Positions 2,553 to 9,559 of a DNA stretch of 15,978 nt are shown here, in pieces. This stretch comes from Lithacetigena sp037446255 [NCBI: Coprothermobacterota bacterium] (GTDB lineage Bacteria > Coprothermobacterota > HKB111): NCBI GenBank assembly GCA_037446255.1, contig JBBIIY010000018.1:1-15978 (forward strand), read 5' to 3'. Both the position numbers and the translations under genes were made by a program. The notes beneath the pieces were generated by a model. It was not told the origin of the DNA and did not search any database. It saw nothing but the letters and a program-made list of their open reading frames with translations. How positions within the stretch are numbered: position 1 is the stretch's first letter; every line of letters begins with the position of its first letter.

Positions 2553-4049
2553 TTACTTAAAGAATCTGTCTGCCCAGGGTTTCATTGGTATGGGCATACC
2601 TTCAAGAGCTGTTTCTTTAGTGATTAATCTTCCCATAGCATGAGTAATAGCCAATCTATCAAGGTTTTTGAATATCGCTTCTACAATATCATAAGCTAAT
2701 TTATTATCCATTTTATCAGTTACCACCAGGGTAGCTTTAACAGCCACAGTAGCAACATCAACAGTAACCTTAGAGTAGGTGTCTTTGGGTATTATTACTC
2801 TGGCATAAAAAGGATACTTAGCCATGAGTCTGGTGGCAATATCAGAGGGGACAGGAATTAATGCAATATCTCGGGAAGCTGCTAAATCTCTTACTGCTGC
2901 TGTGGGTAATCCACCGGTAACGAAGGCTACATCCACATGGCCATCTCTTAATCCAGCTGATGCTTCAGCAAAAGATAGATAACGGGGAGTGATATCTTTA
3001 TAGGTAATACCGGAAATATCAAGAATTTGACGAGCATTAGCTTCGGTTCCACTTCCAATAGCACCTACTGCTACTCTTTTTCCTCGTAAATCAGCAATAG
3101 CTCTTATACCGCTAGCAGCTAAGGTAATTATTTGTATAGTCTCGGGATAAAGAGTAGCTAATCCCCGAAGTCCATCAAATTTATTACCATCAAACATTTC
3201 TGTACCGGTATAGGCATAGTAGGATATATCATTCTGCATGAAAGCCAATTGAACAGCACCATCTTTTAAAAGTTGAACATTAGCGATAGATGCGCCAGTG
3301 GTTTGAACGCTGGCATTAATCCCTGGTACATTTCTATTTAATATTTCAGCAACAGCTCCGCCCAATGGGAAGTAAACCCCTGCAGTACCTCCAGTTGCAA
3401 TGTTTATAAACTCAACTTTATGGGGATTTAAAACTTTAAAGATTCCATACGCTACTTCCCCTCTTGTTCCTTGAGCAGCAGGAGCAATGGCAAAGTCTTT
3501 CCGGAAAGTTAGAAATCTATGGGGTAACTGATAGCCTAATGTAACCCAACCAACAGCCCATGATGGAACTTGCCCTGCATCACTTGCGATAGAAGGGGCT
3601 GAAGTTATTTTAGCAGCATCATCGGCTAATCCTTTAGCCTGACCCAGAAGGGCTGCCATTTCTGCTCTGGTTACATTAGAATTTGGTTTGAAGGATTTAT
3701 CAGGATAACCCTTCATGAAACCTAATTTATTTACAGCTAAAATATGGCCAAAAGCCCAGTGAGTTGTTGCTAAATCTATGAATGGACTAACATCTGCTTT
3801 CATAGGAGGGGCTTTTTTGGCTAAAGCAATCATTATTGCTATTTCAGCTCGGGTTACCAATCCATCAGGACGAAAAGTTCCATCAGGATAACCTTTAACA
3901 ATTCCTAATTCTACTAATTTCTTTATTTCAGCTTCAAATTCATGCCCTGAAATATCTTTAAATGTAGTAGAAGCTAGGGAATAAGAATTAATTCCCAGTA
4001 ATGTAACAATGAGAACTAATGACACAAACACCGAGATAAGTTTTTTCAC
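2553..4049 (-). CDS. TAXI-family TRAP solute-binding protein with N-terminal SLH repeats
   Basis: Exported solute receptor of the TRAP transporter encoded downstream. A signal peptide (KK followed by a hydrophobic stretch, about residues 2-25) is followed by two clear SLH repeats near residues 30-77 and 89-137, with motifs GIVKGYPDGTFRPD...VTRAE and GFMKGYPDKSFKPN...VTRAE. A third, degenerate SLH repeat is near 154-207. The TAXI domain fills residues 212-498, with the family-like ATGGTAGVYFPLGG near its start and GSGTE at 332-336. SLH repeats bind secondary cell-wall polymers, so the receptor may be tied to the wall instead of being lipid-anchored or free. I chose the GTG at 4047-4049: AAAGGAG (4059-4065) lies 9 nt upstream. 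The earlier in-frame ATG at 4091 has no such site and falls at the predicted transcription start. Confidence 0.92.
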   Translation of the reverse strand: MKKLISVFVSLVLIVTLLGINSYSLASTTFKDISGHEFEAEIKKLVELGIVKGYPDGTFRPDGLVTRAEIAIMIALAKKAPPMKADVSPFIDLATTHWAFGHILAVNKLGFMKGYPDKSFKPNSNVTRAEMAALLGQAKGLADDAAKITSAPSIASDAGQVPSWAVGWVTLGYQLPHRFLTFRKDFAIAPAAQGTRGEVAYGIFKVLNPHKVEFINIATGGTAGVYFPLGGAVAEILNRNVPGINASVQTTGASIANVQLLKDGAVQLAFMQNDISYYAYTGTEMFDGNKFDGLRGLATLYPETIQIITLAASGIRAIADLRGKRVAVGAIGSGTEANARQILDISGITYKDITPRYLSFAEASAGLRDGHVDVAFVTGGLPTAAVRDLAASRDIALIPVPSDIATRLMAKYPFYARVIIPKDTYSKVTVDVATVAVKATLVVTDKMDNKLAYDIVEAIFKNLDRLAITHAMGRLITKETALEGMPIPMKPWADRFFK

Positions 4050-4058
4050 TTTTTTACG

Positions 4059-4065
4059 CTCCTTT
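4059..4065 (-). promoter_or_regulatory. Ribosome binding site that decides the TAXI gene start
   Basis: AAAGGAG on the minus strand, 9 nt before the GTG at 4047-4049. The upstream ATG at 4089-4091 has only AT-rich sequence before it. This supports a 498-residue protein with a normal signal peptide rather than a 512-residue one with a charged extension. Confidence 0.8.
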
Positions 4066-4097
4066 GATCTGATTAATTTGTGTATATCCATATACTA

Positions 4098-4166: not shown

Positions 4167-4757
4167 TTATTTTTTGGTAAATTTAGCTCCACATTTTAGA
4201 CAACTTTCTGAGTCAAAACGAGTTACTTCTCCACACTCAGGGCAGACGCCTATACTGGCTCCACAACTCTTACAATAGGGAATAACTCCCGACATTGCTG
4301 CATCACAATAGGGACAGGCACACCCTTCTTCTTTTTCAACCCTCTTTTCTTCTATTTTAGATTTGATAAATGGTGTTGATTCTGCTAATCTCTTTCTTTG
4401 ATAATCTTCAATAGCTTTATGCAAAGCATCAGCGCCAAGATTAGAACAATGCATCTTATTTTGCGGTAATCCACCCAACTCTTCAGCTACCTGTTTATTG
4501 GTTATGGTTAGGGCTTCCTCGAGAGTCTTACCTTTTGCCATTTCTGATACCATCGACGACACAGCAATAGCCGCTCCACAACCAAAAGTTTGAAATTTTA
4601 TATCATCAAGATAGTCATTCTTAACTGTAATATAAAAGGTCATCATATCTCCACAGACAGGATTACCAACTTCTCCGACACCATCGGGGCTATCTATTAC
4701 TCCCACATTTTTGGGGTTCAAGAAATGCTCCATAACTTTTTCACTATAGGGTGACAT
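4167..4757 (-). CDS. iscU: IscU/NifU-type Fe-S scaffold with C-terminal double zinc ribbon
   Basis: Scaffold on which Fe-S clusters are built with sulfur from the cysteine desulfurases encoded just upstream. Residues 1-125 form the IscU domain. The three cluster-ligand cysteines are visible at Cys35 (GNPVCGD, with Asp37), Cys60 (FGCGAA) and Cys104 (KMHCSNLGADAL). After a charged linker (about 126-144) comes a tail of about 50 residues with four CxxC pairs at 148/151, 162/165, 172/175 and 186/189. These look like two zinc ribbons. The classical long NifU instead carries a 2Fe-2S domain and a Nfu domain, so this tail is different; its role is unknown. The ATG has AAAGGAG upstream, only a single base separates it from the preceding gene's stop, and the genes form one operon. 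The symbol names the scaffold family only. Confidence 0.9.
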   Translation of the reverse strand: MSPYSEKVMEHFLNPKNVGVIDSPDGVGEVGNPVCGDMMTFYITVKNDYLDDIKFQTFGCGAAIAVSSMVSEMAKGKTLEEALTITNKQVAEELGGLPQNKMHCSNLGADALHKAIEDYQRKRLAESTPFIKSKIEEKRVEKEEGCACPYCDAAMSGVIPYCKSCGASIGVCPECGEVTRFDSESCLKCGAKFTKK

Positions 4758-4758
4758 A

Positions 4759-5940
4759 TTAAACTCCTTTTTCTTTCAGATATTTTGTATATAAAGGTGA
4801 CATGTTTCTCAAGCGGTTTACTACTTCAGGAAATATTTTTAAGAAATATTCTATTTCGGAATATTGATTATCCGGTGATAGTGATAATACCAGGGACCCC
4901 TGAATAATTTCAGCAGGAAGACCGAGGGCTGTTAACACATGTGATGCTTTAAGCGCTCGAGAAGTACAGGTTGAACCACTGGCAGCAGCAATACCCTTAG
5001 TACTGAGTAACATTAACATTGATTCACCTTCAATGAATTCAACACATAAACTTAAATGTCCAGGAAGTCTTTGTTGTGGATGACCTGTGAAATACACCTT
5101 TTCCACCAGATTGGTAATACCTTTTACTAGTGGATCTCTAAGACTAATTAAATGAGTTACCCATTCTTTTCGTTTATCTTTAAGTATTTCTGCTGCTTTC
5201 CCCATTCCAGCAATCCCTGGAACATTATGAATCCCTGCTCTTCTACCATTTTCTTGAACTCCGCCCTCTATTAAAGGTAGCATTTTAGTTCCTTTTCTCA
5301 CATATAAGGCACCCACACCCTTAGGACCATAAAATTTGTGAGCTGATATTGATAATAAATCTACTCCCATTTCATTTATATCCACATTCAGGTAACCAAC
5401 ACTTTGCACAGCATCAGTATGAAAATAAGCCTTGGAATTTTCTTTGATAACCTTAGATATTTCTTCTATGGGCTGTATAGTCCCTATTTCATTATTAGCA
5501 TGCATTATGGAAACGAGAATGGTATCTTTTCTAAGAGCTTTTCTGACATCATCAGGGTTAACTAAACCAAAGCGGTCAACAGGAAGATAAGTAGCTTCAT
5601 AACCGAGTTTTTCCAGTCTCTTGTAGGGATGAAGGACCGAGAAATGTTCAATGCTGGAAGTAATCAGATGTTTACCGATTGAAAGGCGAGCTTCAGCAAC
5701 GCCTTTTATGGCTAAATTATTAGCCTCGGTTCCGCTGGAAGTAAAGATTATATCTTCTGGCTCAGCATTAATAAGCTGAGCTACGCTTATTCTGGAAGAT
5801 TCAATAATTGTTCTACTTTCATCTCCAAAAAAATGCAAACTTTCGGGGTTTCCATAATTATCACTCAAAAAAGGCAGCATATATTTATAAACGTCAGGGT
5901 GAACCATGGTAGTAGCTATGTTGTCAAAATATATTTTCAA
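4759..5940 (-). CDS. Cysteine desulfurase, NifS/IscS-like paralogue (second of a tandem pair)
   Basis: PLP-dependent enzyme of the class V aminotransferase fold, 393 residues. The PLP-binding lysine is Lys202 (SAHKFYGPKG). Also visible are HANNEIGTIQP, HTDAVQ, and the mobile-loop cysteine Cys325 in GSTCTSRALKASHVL. It differs from its neighbour at usually conserved places: RAGIHN instead of RPGTHN, and SLVLSLSPDN where the neighbour has SLRFSLGRLT. The C-terminus, MSPLYTKYLKEK, recalls a clostridial NifS-like clade. The start is TTG (5938-5940), with AAGGAG 6 nt upstream; it overlaps the upstream stop by 4 bp (TTGA), implying translational coupling. Residues 110-218, including the PLP lysine, are encoded by DNA identical to the upstream paralogue. 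It probably supplies sulfur to the following scaffold, but division of labour between the paralogues is unknown. Confidence 0.9.
   Translation of the reverse strand: MKIYFDNIATTMVHPDVYKYMLPFLSDNYGNPESLHFFGDESRTIIESSRISVAQLINAEPEDIIFTSSGTEANNLAIKGVAEARLSIGKHLITSSIEHFSVLHPYKRLEKLGYEATYLPVDRFGLVNPDDVRKALRKDTILVSIMHANNEIGTIQPIEEISKVIKENSKAYFHTDAVQSVGYLNVDINEMGVDLLSISAHKFYGPKGVGALYVRKGTKMLPLIEGGVQENGRRAGIHNVPGIAGMGKAAEILKDKRKEWVTHLISLRDPLVKGITNLVEKVYFTGHPQQRLPGHLSLCVEFIEGESMLMLLSTKGIAAASGSTCTSRALKASHVLTALGLPAEIIQGSLVLSLSPDNQYSEIEYFLKIFPEVVNRLRNMSPLYTKYLKEKGV
5288..5613 (-). repeat. Copy 1 of a perfect 326-bp direct repeat inside the tandem iscS-like genes
   Basis: Base-for-base identical to 6448-6773 (offset 1160). 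It encodes residues 110-218 of the downstream desulfurase. Identity stops abruptly: the first differences are at 5287 and 5614, and the flanking coding sequence is strongly diverged at both DNA and protein level. Confidence 0.97.
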
Positions 5941-7118
5941 ACTCTTCTCCTTAAGGGAGATATGTCCCTCAACCTTCTTACTTCCTTTTCTAAAACCAGT
6001 AGTGTATATTCAATATCTTCATCATAAGTCAGTCTCCCCAGGGAAAAACGCAAACTTCCCCTGGCGAATTCTGGTTTCATTCCTATCCCCAGGAGTACAT
6101 GAGAAGCTTCAACTTCTCCTGAAGAACAGGCAGAACCGGTAGATACATAGATCCCTTTATCTGAAATGGCTGTTAACAGAGCTTCGCCGTCAATACCTAA
6201 AAAAGCGAAATTACTATTGTTAGGTAGCCTATGTAAAGGGTGACCATTATAGATTACATCTTCTATACCCTTTTCTATACCAGATCTCAGCTTATCTCTT
6301 AATGACATAACTCTCGGGGATTCTATGTGCTTTTCGGCTGCTACCAATTCTGCAGCCTTACCCAGCCCTACGATGCCTGGAACATTATGGGTTCCTGGCC
6401 TTATCCCTTTTTCCTGCCCTCCGCCTCTAATGAATGGATTAATTTTCGTTCCTTTTCTCACATATAAGGCACCCACACCCTTAGGACCATAAAATTTGTG
6501 AGCTGATATTGATAATAAATCTACTCCCATTTCATTTATATCCACATTCAGGTAACCAACACTTTGCACAGCATCAGTATGAAAATAAGCCTTGGAATTT
6601 TCTTTGATAACCTTAGATATTTCTTCTATGGGCTGTATAGTCCCTATTTCATTATTAGCATGCATTATGGAAACGAGAATGGTATCTTTTCTAAGAGCTT
6701 TTCTGACATCATCAGGGTTAACTAAACCAAAGCGGTCAACAGGAAGATAAGTAGCTTCATAACCGAGTTTTTCTAAATGATGAAAAACTTCAAGTACTGC
6801 ATGATGTTCAGTTCTGGAAGTGATAATGTGTTTTCCGTGTTCATAATTAGCAAAGCAAATACCAGAGATAGCCAGGTTATTACTTTCTGTAGCCCCAGAG
6901 GTAAAAAATATTTCATCTTTAATAGAACCTGCCAACAACATAGATGCTCTTTTACGAGCAAGATCAACAGCTTCTGCTGCTTGCTGACCAAAGTGATGAA
7001 CACTCATCGGATTAGCAAAATATTCTTGAAAATAAGGCATCATCTCCTTAAGAACCTCTGTTCTGGTAGGAGTAGTTGCAGCATGGTCAAGATAAACTTT
7101 ACGGTGCTGTTTGTTCAT
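5937..7118 (-). CDS. iscS: Cysteine desulfurase IscS/NifS (first of a tandem pair)
   Basis: Removes sulfur from L-cysteine as an enzyme persulfide for Fe-S cluster assembly. The protein has 393 residues and all canonical landmarks: DHAATTP at 11-17, SGATESNN at 74-81, His105 in the TEHHAV segment, HANNEIGTIQP, the PLP lysine Lys208 (SAHKFYGPKG), GGGQEKGIRPGTHN at 232-245, the active loop cysteine Cys331 (STGSACSS), and SLRFSLGRLT near the C-terminus. The ATG at 7116-7118 has GGAGG about 8 nt upstream. It is first gene of an operon with the second desulfurase (4-bp overlap) and the IscU-type scaffold. Residues 116-224 are encoded by the 326-bp tract shared with the paralogue. Since this copy keeps the canonical residues, it is the likelier main desulfurase (inference). 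Confidence 0.94.
   Translation of the reverse strand: MNKQHRKVYLDHAATTPTRTEVLKEMMPYFQEYFANPMSVHHFGQQAAEAVDLARKRASMLLAGSIKDEIFFTSGATESNNLAISGICFANYEHGKHIITSRTEHHAVLEVFHHLEKLGYEATYLPVDRFGLVNPDDVRKALRKDTILVSIMHANNEIGTIQPIEEISKVIKENSKAYFHTDAVQSVGYLNVDINEMGVDLLSISAHKFYGPKGVGALYVRKGTKINPFIRGGGQEKGIRPGTHNVPGIVGLGKAAELVAAEKHIESPRVMSLRDKLRSGIEKGIEDVIYNGHPLHRLPNNSNFAFLGIDGEALLTAISDKGIYVSTGSACSSGEVEASHVLLGIGMKPEFARGSLRFSLGRLTYDEDIEYTLLVLEKEVRRLRDISPLRRRV
6448..6773 (-). repeat. Copy 2 of the perfect 326-bp direct repeat
   Basis: Identical to 5288-5613 and in the same orientation and reading register. It encodes residues 116-224 of the upstream desulfurase, including the PLP lysine. Flanks diverge immediately at 6447 and 6774. 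Confidence 0.97.
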
Positions 7119-7183: not shown

Positions 7184-7230
7184 CCCTTTATTGAATAATT
7201 AATACTTGATATATTACTAACCTTATTTTG

Positions 7231-7239
7231 TGCTATACT
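7231..7239 (+). promoter_or_regulatory. Extended -10 promoter of the nfeD-floA operon
   Basis: TGCTATACT is an extended -10 (TGn plus a one-mismatch TATAAT). Six bases separate it from the nfeD ATG at 7246, so the expected transcription start is the A of that ATG. No good -35 box is present at 17 nt upstream (ATATTA). It lies back to back with the iscS promoter. Confidence 0.6.
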
Positions 7240-7245
7240 ATTTTT

Positions 7246-8547
7246 ATGAAGAAACTAATTAAATATTTATCAAGACTATGTTTAATTTTGTTAGTTGCGT
7301 ACTTCCTCCAACTTCCTGACATTTTAACTCAAACAAAGCAACCCACTTTATATGTGGTTAATATTTCAGGCACTATAGACCACGGTTTAGCTGCTTTAGT
7401 GAAAAGGGCTGCCAGAAACACAAAACCGCAGGATACCCTGCTTTTCAGGATTGATACTTTCGGAGGATTGGTAGATGCCGCTACGATTATTAAAGATGCC
7501 ATCATATCATCTCCAGCAGAAACCATTGCTTTTGTTGAAAAAAGAGCCTGGTCAGCAGGAGCATTAATCGCTATATCCTGCCAGAAAATAGTCATGGCAC
7601 CTGGTTCATCAATGGGAGCAGCTGAACCAAGACCAGCTGATGAAAAAACCATCTCAGCACTTAAAGGTGAGTTTGAGTCAACCGCTGAAGCTCGTAAAAG
7701 AGATCCAAAAGTTGCTGTTGCCATGGTTGACAAAAGCATTGTAATCGAGAACCTGGTTAATGAGGGTGAAATATTAACTCTTACCGCAGAACAGGCAAAA
7801 GAACATGGATATGCTGATTACAAAATAGCAACTCTGGAATTACTTATTTCTGAATTGAAGTTAGATAAACATACCTACAAAGAACTAACTATCACCTGGT
7901 CTGAAGGAATAACACGCTGGTTGACTGAACCAACTTTATTATCTTTATTCCTTTCTTTCGGGATATTAGGTATCTTTTTTGAGTTGCAGACCCCAGGATG
8001 GGGAGTTCCAGGTACCTTTGGAGTTATTTGTCTGGCACTATTTTATAGTGGGAGATACCTTGCTGGACTTGCTGGTTTTGAGCACCTTCTTTTGATACTC
8101 AGTGGGTTAATACTAATTTTTATAGAAATGCACACTCCAGGTTTTGGAATTGCCGGGGTTACTGGAATAGCAGCGCTTTCTTCAGGTATGTTTTTAGCCT
8201 TAGGTGGTCTATCTAACTTAGGTCCTTCCCTGTTAATAACTTCACTGGTGATATTAGCCATGTTTATCATATTGGCTATTTATCTTCCCCGAAGTAGAGT
8301 TTGGAAATCATTGGGATTACAAAAAACTGAAGAAACTGAAGAAGGATACATTGCACCTCCTGATTCAAATAGGTTGCTTGGCAAAGAAGGTGTTTCCATA
8401 TCAATGCTTCGTCCTTCTGGTATTGCTTTAATTGAAGGTGAAAGAATCAATGTTCAAACTGATGGAGAATTTATACCACCTGATACCCCTATCAAAGTGA
8501 TTCAAGTTGAAGGTGTAAAAATAGTTGTAAATAGAAAAATATCGTGA
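7246..8547 (+). CDS. nfeD: NfeD-type membrane-bound serine protease (long form)
   Basis: Partner of flotillin FloA in membrane microdomains. The 433 residues are ordered as: signal/anchor helix (about 8-22); ClpP-like protease domain (about 33-215); a block of membrane helices (about 230-350); and a soluble OB-like NfeD C-terminal domain (about 370-433). The candidate nucleophile is Ser103 in WSAGA, and a general-base lysine is likely in the following region (Lys134 in ADEKTIS is a candidate by position). [12 protein letters not shown] at 68-79 fits the ClpP-fold substrate-binding strand. I start at the ATG 7246; an in-frame TTG at 7228 would lie upstream of the predicted transcription start. 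No Shine-Dalgarno sequence precedes the ATG and the promoter -10 is only 6 nt away, so the mRNA looks leaderless. floA follows after 16 bp. Confidence 0.92.
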
Positions 8548-8563
8548 TAAAGGAGGTTTTAGT

Positions 8564-9559
8564 ATGTTAAACGATTTAATAAGTGTTCTGGGACCTTTTA
8601 CTACTTTAATCGTTGTATTGGTGTTGATAATACTTTTTTTCCAGTTTGTCCCATTGGGTTTATGGATTTCAGCACTCGCTGCAGGTGTTCGTTTACAGGT
8701 GATTACTCTCATCGGAATGCGTTTAAGGAGAGTCCCTGCTTATGCAATTATAAACCCTTTGATTAAAGCAACTAAAGCAGGTCTGAAATTGTCTGTTGAC
8801 AGCCTAGAAGCTCACTATCTGGCTGGTGGAAATGTTGACCGAGTAGTGAACGCTATTATTGCGGCACAAAGGGCAGCAATACCCTTAACTTTCGAAAGGG
8901 CTTCGGCTATTGACCTTGCTGGCAGAAATGTTCTGGAAGCAGTTCAGATGTCAGTTAACCCTAAAGTAATAGAAACTCCCACCATTGCAGCTGTGGCTAA
9001 AGATGGAATTGAGCTTAAGGCTCGGGCTAAAGTAACAGTAAGAGCCAACATAGACCGTCTTGTTGGTGGTGCAGGGGAAGAAACTATTATAGCCAGGGTT
9101 GGGGAAGGTGTGGTAACTACAATTGGATCGGCCATAAGCCATAAAGCAGTGTTAGAAAACCCCGATTTAATTTCAAAAACGGTTCTACTAAAAGGCCTGG
9201 ATGCAGGAACAGCTTTTGAAATACTTTCTATTGATATCGCTGATGTTGATGTTGGTCAAAATATCGGAGCCAAGCTTCAAATAGATCAAGCAGAGGCTGA
9301 CAAAAGAATTGCCCAGGCTAAAGCAGAGGAAAGAAGAGCCATGGCTGTGGCTAAAGAGCAAGAAATGAGGGCTTATACACAAGAGATGCGCGCTAAAGTG
9401 GTAGAAGCTGAGAGAGAAGTTCCTCAGGCTATAGCCCAGGCTTTAAAAGAAGGTAAGCTTGGGGTTTTTGACTACCTATCCATGAAGAATGTTATTGCTG
9501 ATACTGATATGAGGGACTCCATCTCCCGAATTTCTGAAAAGAAAGATAAAGAAGGTTAA
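8564..9559 (+). CDS. floA: Flotillin-like membrane scaffold protein FloA (SPFH family)
   Basis: Organises functional membrane microdomains on the inner face of the cytoplasmic membrane. At 331 residues it has the usual FloA length. A hydrophobic N-terminal hairpin (about residues 8-42) is followed by the SPFH core with highly typical segments such as [19 protein letters not shown] and [17 protein letters not shown]. An Ala/Glu/Arg-rich coiled coil runs from about 240 to 290 ([18 protein letters not shown]). The ATG has a strong AAAGGAGG site 7 nt upstream, right after the nfeD stop. The nfeD-floA pairing is conserved in Bacillota (yqeZ-yqfA in Bacillus subtilis). Confidence 0.96.

What the first reader, a model, noticed from the sequence alone, without database searches (positions are those of the whole stretch)
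5288..6773. 326-bp perfect identity between two otherwise diverged tandem cysteine desulfurase genes
Positions 5288-5613 and 6448-6773 match at every base, including silent positions, while both flanks diverge at once to roughly 40% protein identity by eye. The tract encodes the PLP-lysine region (about 109 residues). Ancient paralogues cannot keep silent sites identical by selection alone, so recent gene conversion (unidirectional copying) is the natural reading. A misassembly that merged two reads at a conserved core is the main alternative. If real, one desulfurase now has a catalytic core from its paralogue, and conversion may couple PLP-site evolution while the active cysteine loops stay distinct.
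Basis: partly seen in the sequence, partly recalled or inferred. Interest (0 to 1): 0.72.

Follow-up and report, generated by a model that had tools for sequence, protein, structure and literature searches.

The report
Dead desulfurase given back active core
Two neighbouring sulfur-handling genes share 326 identical DNA letters, most likely because a working enzyme's core was recently copied over that of its neighbour, whose sampled relatives all lack the lysine that anchors the cofactor, so a probably inactive protein has regained that lysine in one step.

Summary
In 70 other NifS paralogue pairs (60 genomes) the longest shared run was 20 bp. Minus-strand order: A (5937-7118), B (4759-5940), NifU (4167-4757).

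Gene conversion holds up, but the main point was missed. B's flanks place it in a NifS-like family in which none of 112 sampled members has the PLP-binding lysine (IscS K206) or the substrate arginine (R354). Among 281 sampled homologues lysine without arginine never occurs; window B is the only case (K, V354). The tract resembles A-type cores, so copying most likely ran A to B and put lysine, Gln183, Ser203 and His205 into B together. B still lacks R354 and the PGT-motif threonine, so activity is not assured.

Open: assembly error cannot be excluded without reads. No relative closer than 60% protein identity was found. The flank tree does not reject B branching before the lysine was lost (AU p = 0.20). 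Repeated conversion as a habit is not supported. Conversion between ancient paralogues is known (RF1/RF2); I found no report of a recent one into a lysine-less paralogue.

The parts
5937..7118 (-). gene A: canonical NifS/IscS-type cysteine desulfurase, 393 aa; probable donor. K208, Q185, C331, R357 all present
   Evidence: 11 of 11 active-site positions; codon places
4759..5940 (-). gene B: NifS-like paralogue, 393 aa, TTG start with AAGGAG upstream, 4-nt overlap with the end of A; recipient. Flanks belong to the lysine-less family, core is A-type
   Evidence: flank trees; 9 of 11 active-site positions
6448..6773 (-). tract copy in gene A (probable donor copy), A residues 116-223
5288..5613 (-). 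tract copy in gene B (probable recipient copy), B residues 110-217
5335..5337 (-). codon of B K202 (IscS K206 position, PLP Schiff-base lysine), inside the tract; absent in 112 of 112 B-type homologues (the group is defined by that absence)
5404..5406 (-). codon of B Q179 (IscS Q183 position), inside the tract; Gln in 7 of 112 B-type and 139 of 159 lysine-bearing homologues
4888..4890 (-). codon of B V351 (IscS R354 position), outside the tract; Arg in 0 of 112 B-type and 159 of 159 lysine-bearing homologues
5230..5232 (-). codon of B I237 (position of the Thr in the PGT/AGT motif), outside the tract; Thr in 159 of 159 lysine-bearing and 104 of 112 B-type homologues
4966..4968 (-). codon of B C325 (IscS C328 position, catalytic cysteine), kept
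4167..4757 (-). NifU/IscU-type Fe-S scaffold with a probable C-terminal zinc ribbon, next gene after B
   Evidence: PF01592; PF12773 at 26.3 bits, just below its cut-off of 27.3

Best explanation
A recent, one-way copying event (ectopic gene conversion) replaced about 326 bp of gene B with the matching stretch of its upstream neighbour A, 1160 bp away. Shown: exact identity with sharp edges; silent sites saturated outside; the tract resembles A-type cores; B's flanks belong to a NifS-like family whose sampled members lack the PLP lysine and R354. Inferred: before the event B was a lysine-less, probably desulfurase-inactive partner of NifU, like Archaeoglobus fulgidus IscS; the event installed Lys, Gln183, Ser203 and His205 together; and it started from short identical stretches, since diverged NifS pairs offer at most about 20 bp, by replication or repair template switching or by RecA exchange on a minimal segment. 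B may now bind PLP, but it lacks R354 and the PGT-motif Thr, so activity is uncertain.
For: Exact tract, random silent sites outside. 0 of 70 paralogue pairs in 60 genomes share more than 20 bp. Over 128 homologues, identity to the window core follows identity to A's flanks (r = 0.76), not B's (r = -0.20); 33 rows nearer to B in the flanks by over 5 points average 55% core identity (maximum 62%), 17 rows nearer to A average 67% (maximum 77%). Core alone at A's position beats B's position by 16 lnL, AU p = 0.042. Site scan of B: N -27, core +8, C -73 lnL (positive favours A's position). Flank trees put B in the lysine-less clade (SH-aLRT 97, 99, 99.6) and A next to Dictyoglomota rows (88-89). 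K206/R354 over 281 homologues: both 159, neither 121, R without K 1, K without R 0; window B is K without R. Score on 11 active-site positions: lysine-bearing 9-11, B-type 4-7, window B 9.
Against: No reads and no close relative (best 60% identity), so neither misassembly nor the pre-event state of B is excluded directly. In the core test only AU passes 0.05; KH and SH give 0.070. Six core columns that best tell the two types apart split 3 A-like, 2 B-like, 1 neither. The core tree has few columns and groups the tract with one lysine-bearing row (L048) and one B-type row (L009), support 87. B branching before all 47 lysine-less B-type rows is not rejected (AU p = 0.20). RecA exchange is said to need a segment of at most 30 identical bp in bacteria (PMC8918686, passages); the 20 bp at most of control pairs may be too short. 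The homologues were gathered by likeness to B or A, so they are not an even sample.
Confidence: 0.68

Rival explanations
1. Assembly, gap-filling or amplification artefact: B's true core, an ordinary lysine-less one, was overwritten by A's sequence.
For: No own genome is held, so the record may be a metagenome contig; the tract is exact and reads cannot be checked. It would also explain why K without R354 occurs in none of the 281 other homologues.
Against: An assembler must enter and leave A's core from B's flanks; 70 control pairs share at most 20 bp, below usual word sizes (recalled). The A-B junction and the B start with its AAGGAG look natural, the three reading frames are open, and the copies sit at homologous, in-frame positions.
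Confidence: 0.2
2. Conversion in the other direction: B's core was copied into A.
For: Direction is not fixed by the two copies alone; two of six type-telling core columns are B-like.
Against: The tract carries K206, S203, H205 and Q183, found in 0, 30, 11 and 7 of 112 B-type and in 159, 156, 159 and 139 of 159 lysine-bearing homologues; core identity follows A's flanks; likelihood favours A's position.
Confidence: 0.05
3. B's line split off before the family lost its lysine, so B always had a PLP lysine; the conversion merely homogenised two lysine-bearing cores.
For: AU test does not reject B outside all 47 lysine-less B-type rows (p = 0.20); nesting support is only 81-82.
Against: In the best trees Aquificota rows and a group of Desulfobacterales, Deltaproteobacteria and Nitrospirae rows, all lysine-less, branch outside the set that holds B. 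R354 and K206 go together in 280 of 281 homologues, and B has lost R354.
Confidence: 0.15
4. Both copies received the core from a third NifS gene or from another species.
For: A's core is unusually conserved against its flanks, rank 2 of 94.
Against: Dictyoglomota rows, nearest to A's flanks, show the same gap (ranks 1 and 7) and are also nearest to the core by path. One event suffices if A is the donor.
Confidence: 0.05
5. No copying: purifying selection keeps the core identical.
For: The core is more conserved than the flanks across the family (core identity about 0.10 + 0.92 times flank identity).
Against: 106 of 106 codons identical where about half are expected, log10 P near -40.
Confidence: 0.01

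Closest known systems
RF1/RF2 gene conversion in Bacteroidia and Chloroflexi (PMC4530459, abstract and passages seen)
   Same: Partial conversion between anciently split paralogues confined to a functional core domain (about 80-100 residues), with distinct flanks kept; one-way.
   Different: Those are old events found by phylogenetic signal, between two paralogues whose converted domain does the same task. This one is identical at every base, and the recipient's family lacks the catalytic lysine.
Archaeoglobus fulgidus IscS and Methanosarcina acetivorans IscS1 (PMC7585200, passages seen; PDB 4EB5 listed)
   Same: IscS-fold proteins lacking the PLP lysine (Asp in A. fulgidus) and encoded or working with an IscU. 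A. fulgidus IscS has no desulfurase activity and supplies a Cys ligand to the cluster.
   Different: In the flank tree the Asp-bearing rows form a clade (7 rows) separate from the B-type; that A. fulgidus IscS itself falls there was not tested. Window B carries the lysine again.
Canonical NifS/IscS cysteine desulfurases (TIGR03402, IscS, NFS1)
   Same: Gene A: class V fold, 11 of 11 active-site positions; it passes the NF002806 IscS-subfamily cut-off (334.8 against 304 bits).
   Different: Gene B lacks R354 and the PGT threonine and misses the NF002806 cut-off (294.8); A and B both score below the TIGR03402 cut-off (507.3 and 488.8 against 530.75 bits).

Membership tests
Canonical NifS/IscS cysteine desulfurase | Aminotransferase class V fold by sequence | tested here: met
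   PF00266, A 9.7e-84 and B 9e-78
Canonical NifS/IscS cysteine desulfurase | PLP lysine (K206) and catalytic cysteine (C328) | tested here: met
   present in A and in B; in B the lysine lies inside the copied tract
Canonical NifS/IscS cysteine desulfurase | Substrate-carboxylate arginine (R354) and the Thr of the PGT motif | tested here: not met
   met in A; in B they are Val and Ile. Arg role: PMC9978102, PMC3343029, PMC5426080 (passages). A phosphate-binding Thr268 is named in PMC5426080; that it equals the PGT Thr is recalled. R354K kept activity in IscS (PMC9978102), so loss of R354 is not proof of inactivity
Canonical NifS/IscS cysteine desulfurase | NCBIfam cut-offs (TIGR03402 equivalog; NF002806 subfamily) | tested here: inconclusive
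   TIGR03402: A 507.3, B 488.8 against 530.75; NF002806: A 334.8 passes, B 294.8 fails, cut-off 304
Lysine-less B-type NifS-like family (defined here) | Flank sequence clusters with the family | tested here: met
   SH-aLRT 97 to 99.6
Lysine-less B-type NifS-like family (defined here) | No K206, no R354, catalytic Cys kept | tested here: not met
   window B has K206 but no R354 and has the Cys; K206 lies in the copied tract
Ectopic gene conversion | Identity including silent sites over a bounded tract, saturated outside | tested here: met
Ectopic gene conversion | Tract and flanks have different phylogenetic placement | tested here: met
   AU 0.042 but KH and SH 0.070
Ectopic gene conversion | Present in the living genome, not the assembly only | not testable with these tools
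   no reads or second assembly available
Cysteine desulfurase activity of B | PLP binding and sulfur release from cysteine | not testable with these tools
   needs purified protein

The most novel reading that the evidence does not exclude
A paralogue that had lost its cofactor lysine, and had served as a non-enzymatic partner of NifU, was re-armed in a single conversion event by the active gene next door and now binds PLP: pseudoenzyme loss of function reversed by conversion and not by back-mutation.
Probability: 0.3. Interest if true: 0.8.

Novelty: new variant of a known kind. Interest (0 to 1): 0.6.

Why it matters
Loss of a catalytic residue is usually treated as a one-way step. A tandem active paralogue can act as a spare-part store that restores several residues of a dead site at once. 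If real, window B is a natural chimera that tests whether lysine-less NifS-like proteins kept a usable pocket. The survey also shows that PLP-lysine-less NifS-like genes, directly upstream of NifU in 17 of 40 cases with enough sequence, occur in several bacterial groups. Of four such proteins scanned, one (L217) passes an IscS-subfamily cut-off of NCBIfam (312.3 against 304 bits) and the best reaches 530.2 of the 530.75 bits of the NifS model, so naming them cysteine desulfurases may be wrong.

Tried and rejected
Selection alone: rejected by silent sites. Chance: rejected. Repeated conversion as a family habit: no other tract in 70 pairs, which were a hand-picked part of the genomes with two or more listed hits. 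Other window proteins as markers were inconclusive: Ddl matched in 9 of 10 genomes, at most 43%; FloA in 13 of 49, the six best 72-75% in Bacillota, Dictyoglomus and Atribacteria genomes. A viral-contig scan gave two hits at 49%. A treekit AU test did not finish; one search replaced it with 72 rows (47 lysine-less, 24 lysine-bearing, window B) under LG+G4, where my timer stopped the free search at its best tree so far. Structure prediction and fold search were not run.

Full report
WHAT IS THERE. The window carries a minus-strand cluster: gene A (5937-7118), gene B (4759-5940, TTG start preceded by AAGGAG and overlapping the TGA of A) and a NifU-type scaffold gene (4167-4757). The 326-bp identity is exact and sharply bounded, the only exact repeat of 20 bp or more in the window. 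Outside it the two genes are 38% and 42% identical in protein, and their silent sites are random right up to the edges.

HOW UNUSUAL. I took NifS paralogue pairs from 60 other genomes: 48 pairs in 42 genomes and 22 pairs in 18 genomes. The longest exact shared runs were 19 and 20 bp. The genomes were picked by hand from those with two or more listed hits, near-tandem pairs first, without looking at likeness between the copies; not every such genome was taken. Conversion between NifS paralogues is therefore not common, and 326 bp is far outside the range.

WHICH GENE GAVE THE CORE. Among 128 homologues, identity to the window core follows identity to A's flanks (r = 0.76) and not to B's (r = -0.20). 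Placing the core at A's position in the flank tree beats B's position by 16 lnL (AU p = 0.042; KH and SH p = 0.070). A per-site scan of B gives N flank -27, core +8, C flank -73 lnL; for A all three parts favour A's position (+22, +20, +41). Weaker or contrary: six type-telling core columns split 3 A-like, 2 B-like, 1 neither, and the core tree, with few columns, groups the tract with the lysine-bearing row L048 and the B-type row L009 (support 87), although the nearest rows by path are from the Dictyoglomus group.

THE POINT THAT WAS MISSED. B's flanks fall in a clade of NifS-like proteins (SH-aLRT 97, where one outlying long row was in the set; 99; 99.6; 98). Of 281 distinct homologues, 159 have K206 and 122 do not: 112 that I call B-type, 9 with Asp, and one outlier (L208). 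Of the 112, none has R354, 7 keep Q183, 11 H205, 30 S203, and all 112 the catalytic cysteine. Not all 112 were placed on a tree; 47 were in the tree. The 159 with K206 all have R354. Lysine without arginine does not occur in the 281. Window B is exactly that: lysine, Gln, Ser and His from the tract; Val at 354 and Ile at the PGT threonine from its own flanks. On 11 active-site positions lysine-bearing proteins score 9-11, B-type 4-7, Asp-bearing 6-7, window A 11, window B 9. The groups are defined by K206 itself, so that column is circular; R354, H205, Q183 and the flank tree are not. The homologues were gathered by likeness to the window genes and are not an even sample. Residue roles come from passages of PMC9978102 (H104, N155, D180, Q183, K206, C328, R354), PMC3343029 and PMC5426080; the E. 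coli numbers T76, S203, H205 and T243, and the equation of the PGT Thr with the phosphate-binding Thr268 of PMC5426080, are recalled.

PRIOR STATE OF B. Lysine-less Aquificota rows and a group of Desulfobacterales, Deltaproteobacteria and Nitrospirae rows branch outside the set that holds window B (support 82, 81), so parsimony says B's ancestor lacked the lysine. A tree with B outside all 47 lysine-less B-type rows is 9 lnL worse but not rejected (AU p = 0.20).

LIKELY FUNCTION. B-type genes lie directly upstream of NifU (start within 340 bp, same strand) in 17 of 40 cases with enough sequence; lysine-bearing genes do so in 47 of 85, so the neighbourhood is shared (on the 59 B-type and 125 lysine-bearing rows held then). 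A. fulgidus IscS, with Asp for the lysine, has no desulfurase activity and gives a cysteine ligand to the cluster on IscU (PMC7585200, passages). By analogy B-type proteins are probably NifU partners without desulfurase activity; this is inference. A near B is not unique: a lysine-bearing copy lies upstream of a lysine-less one on the same strand in G892 and G741 and in L008 and L111. Nine literature searches listed no title or abstract start on a bacterial lysine-less NifS clade or on conversion among desulfurases; I did not read the listed reviews, and the library lacks most subscription journals.

HOW THE COPYING COULD HAPPEN. [quoted passage not shown] control pairs offer at most 20, which may be too little. 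Either the two genes happened to share more, or earlier small conversions paved the way, or a replication or repair fork switched template to the direct repeat 1160 bp away and back. The tract's end lies in a conserved stretch (B-type relatives match the last 16 residues at 68%, the first 6 and the middle at 51%), which would help pairing at that end; nothing comparable is seen at the other. Zero differences in 326 bp means that the event, or the last of several, is recent.

ASSEMBLY. No reads or second assembly could be examined. An overwriting artefact needs shared words at both edges, unlikely for the same reason that recombination is; I give it 0.2.

VERDICT. Observation confirmed; conversion supported; direction A to B likely; the biological point is a paralogue of a lysine-less family that has received a complete PLP-lysine core. 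Whether it now works is open.

Noticed in passing
L001 6001-7167, L092 1501-2661, L217 1501-2664 and 109 further rows: 112 sampled NifS-like proteins lack the PLP lysine and R354 but keep the catalytic Cys. Of four scanned, one passes the NF002806 IscS-subfamily cut-off and none TIGR03402, two within 3 bits of it.
   Followed up: partly
L039 507-1703, L157, L174, L178, L192, L194, L196: A second, separate lysine-less clade with Asp at the lysine position (7 rows in the tree, starred 99), as reported for A. fulgidus IscS.
   Followed up: partly
L208 80-1258: A single NifS-like protein with Thr at the lysine position but R354 kept; the only such case in 281.
   Followed up: no
window 2553-4091: Fusion of two SLH domains with an NMT1-like solute-binding domain, beside a DUF1850 gene and a DctM-family TRAP permease; the receptor may be anchored to the cell wall.
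   Followed up: no
window 4167-4757: NifU-type scaffold with a probable C-terminal zinc ribbon; long matches reaching into this part in L013 and L125.
   Followed up: no
window 7228-9559: NfeD1b followed by FloA; the same pair with 43% NfeD identity in an Atribacteria genome (L121). The host of the window could not be named.
   Followed up: partly
window 5937-7118: Gene A's flanks are unusually diverged against its core (rank 2 of 94; Dictyoglomus-group rows rank 1 and 7).
   Followed up: partly
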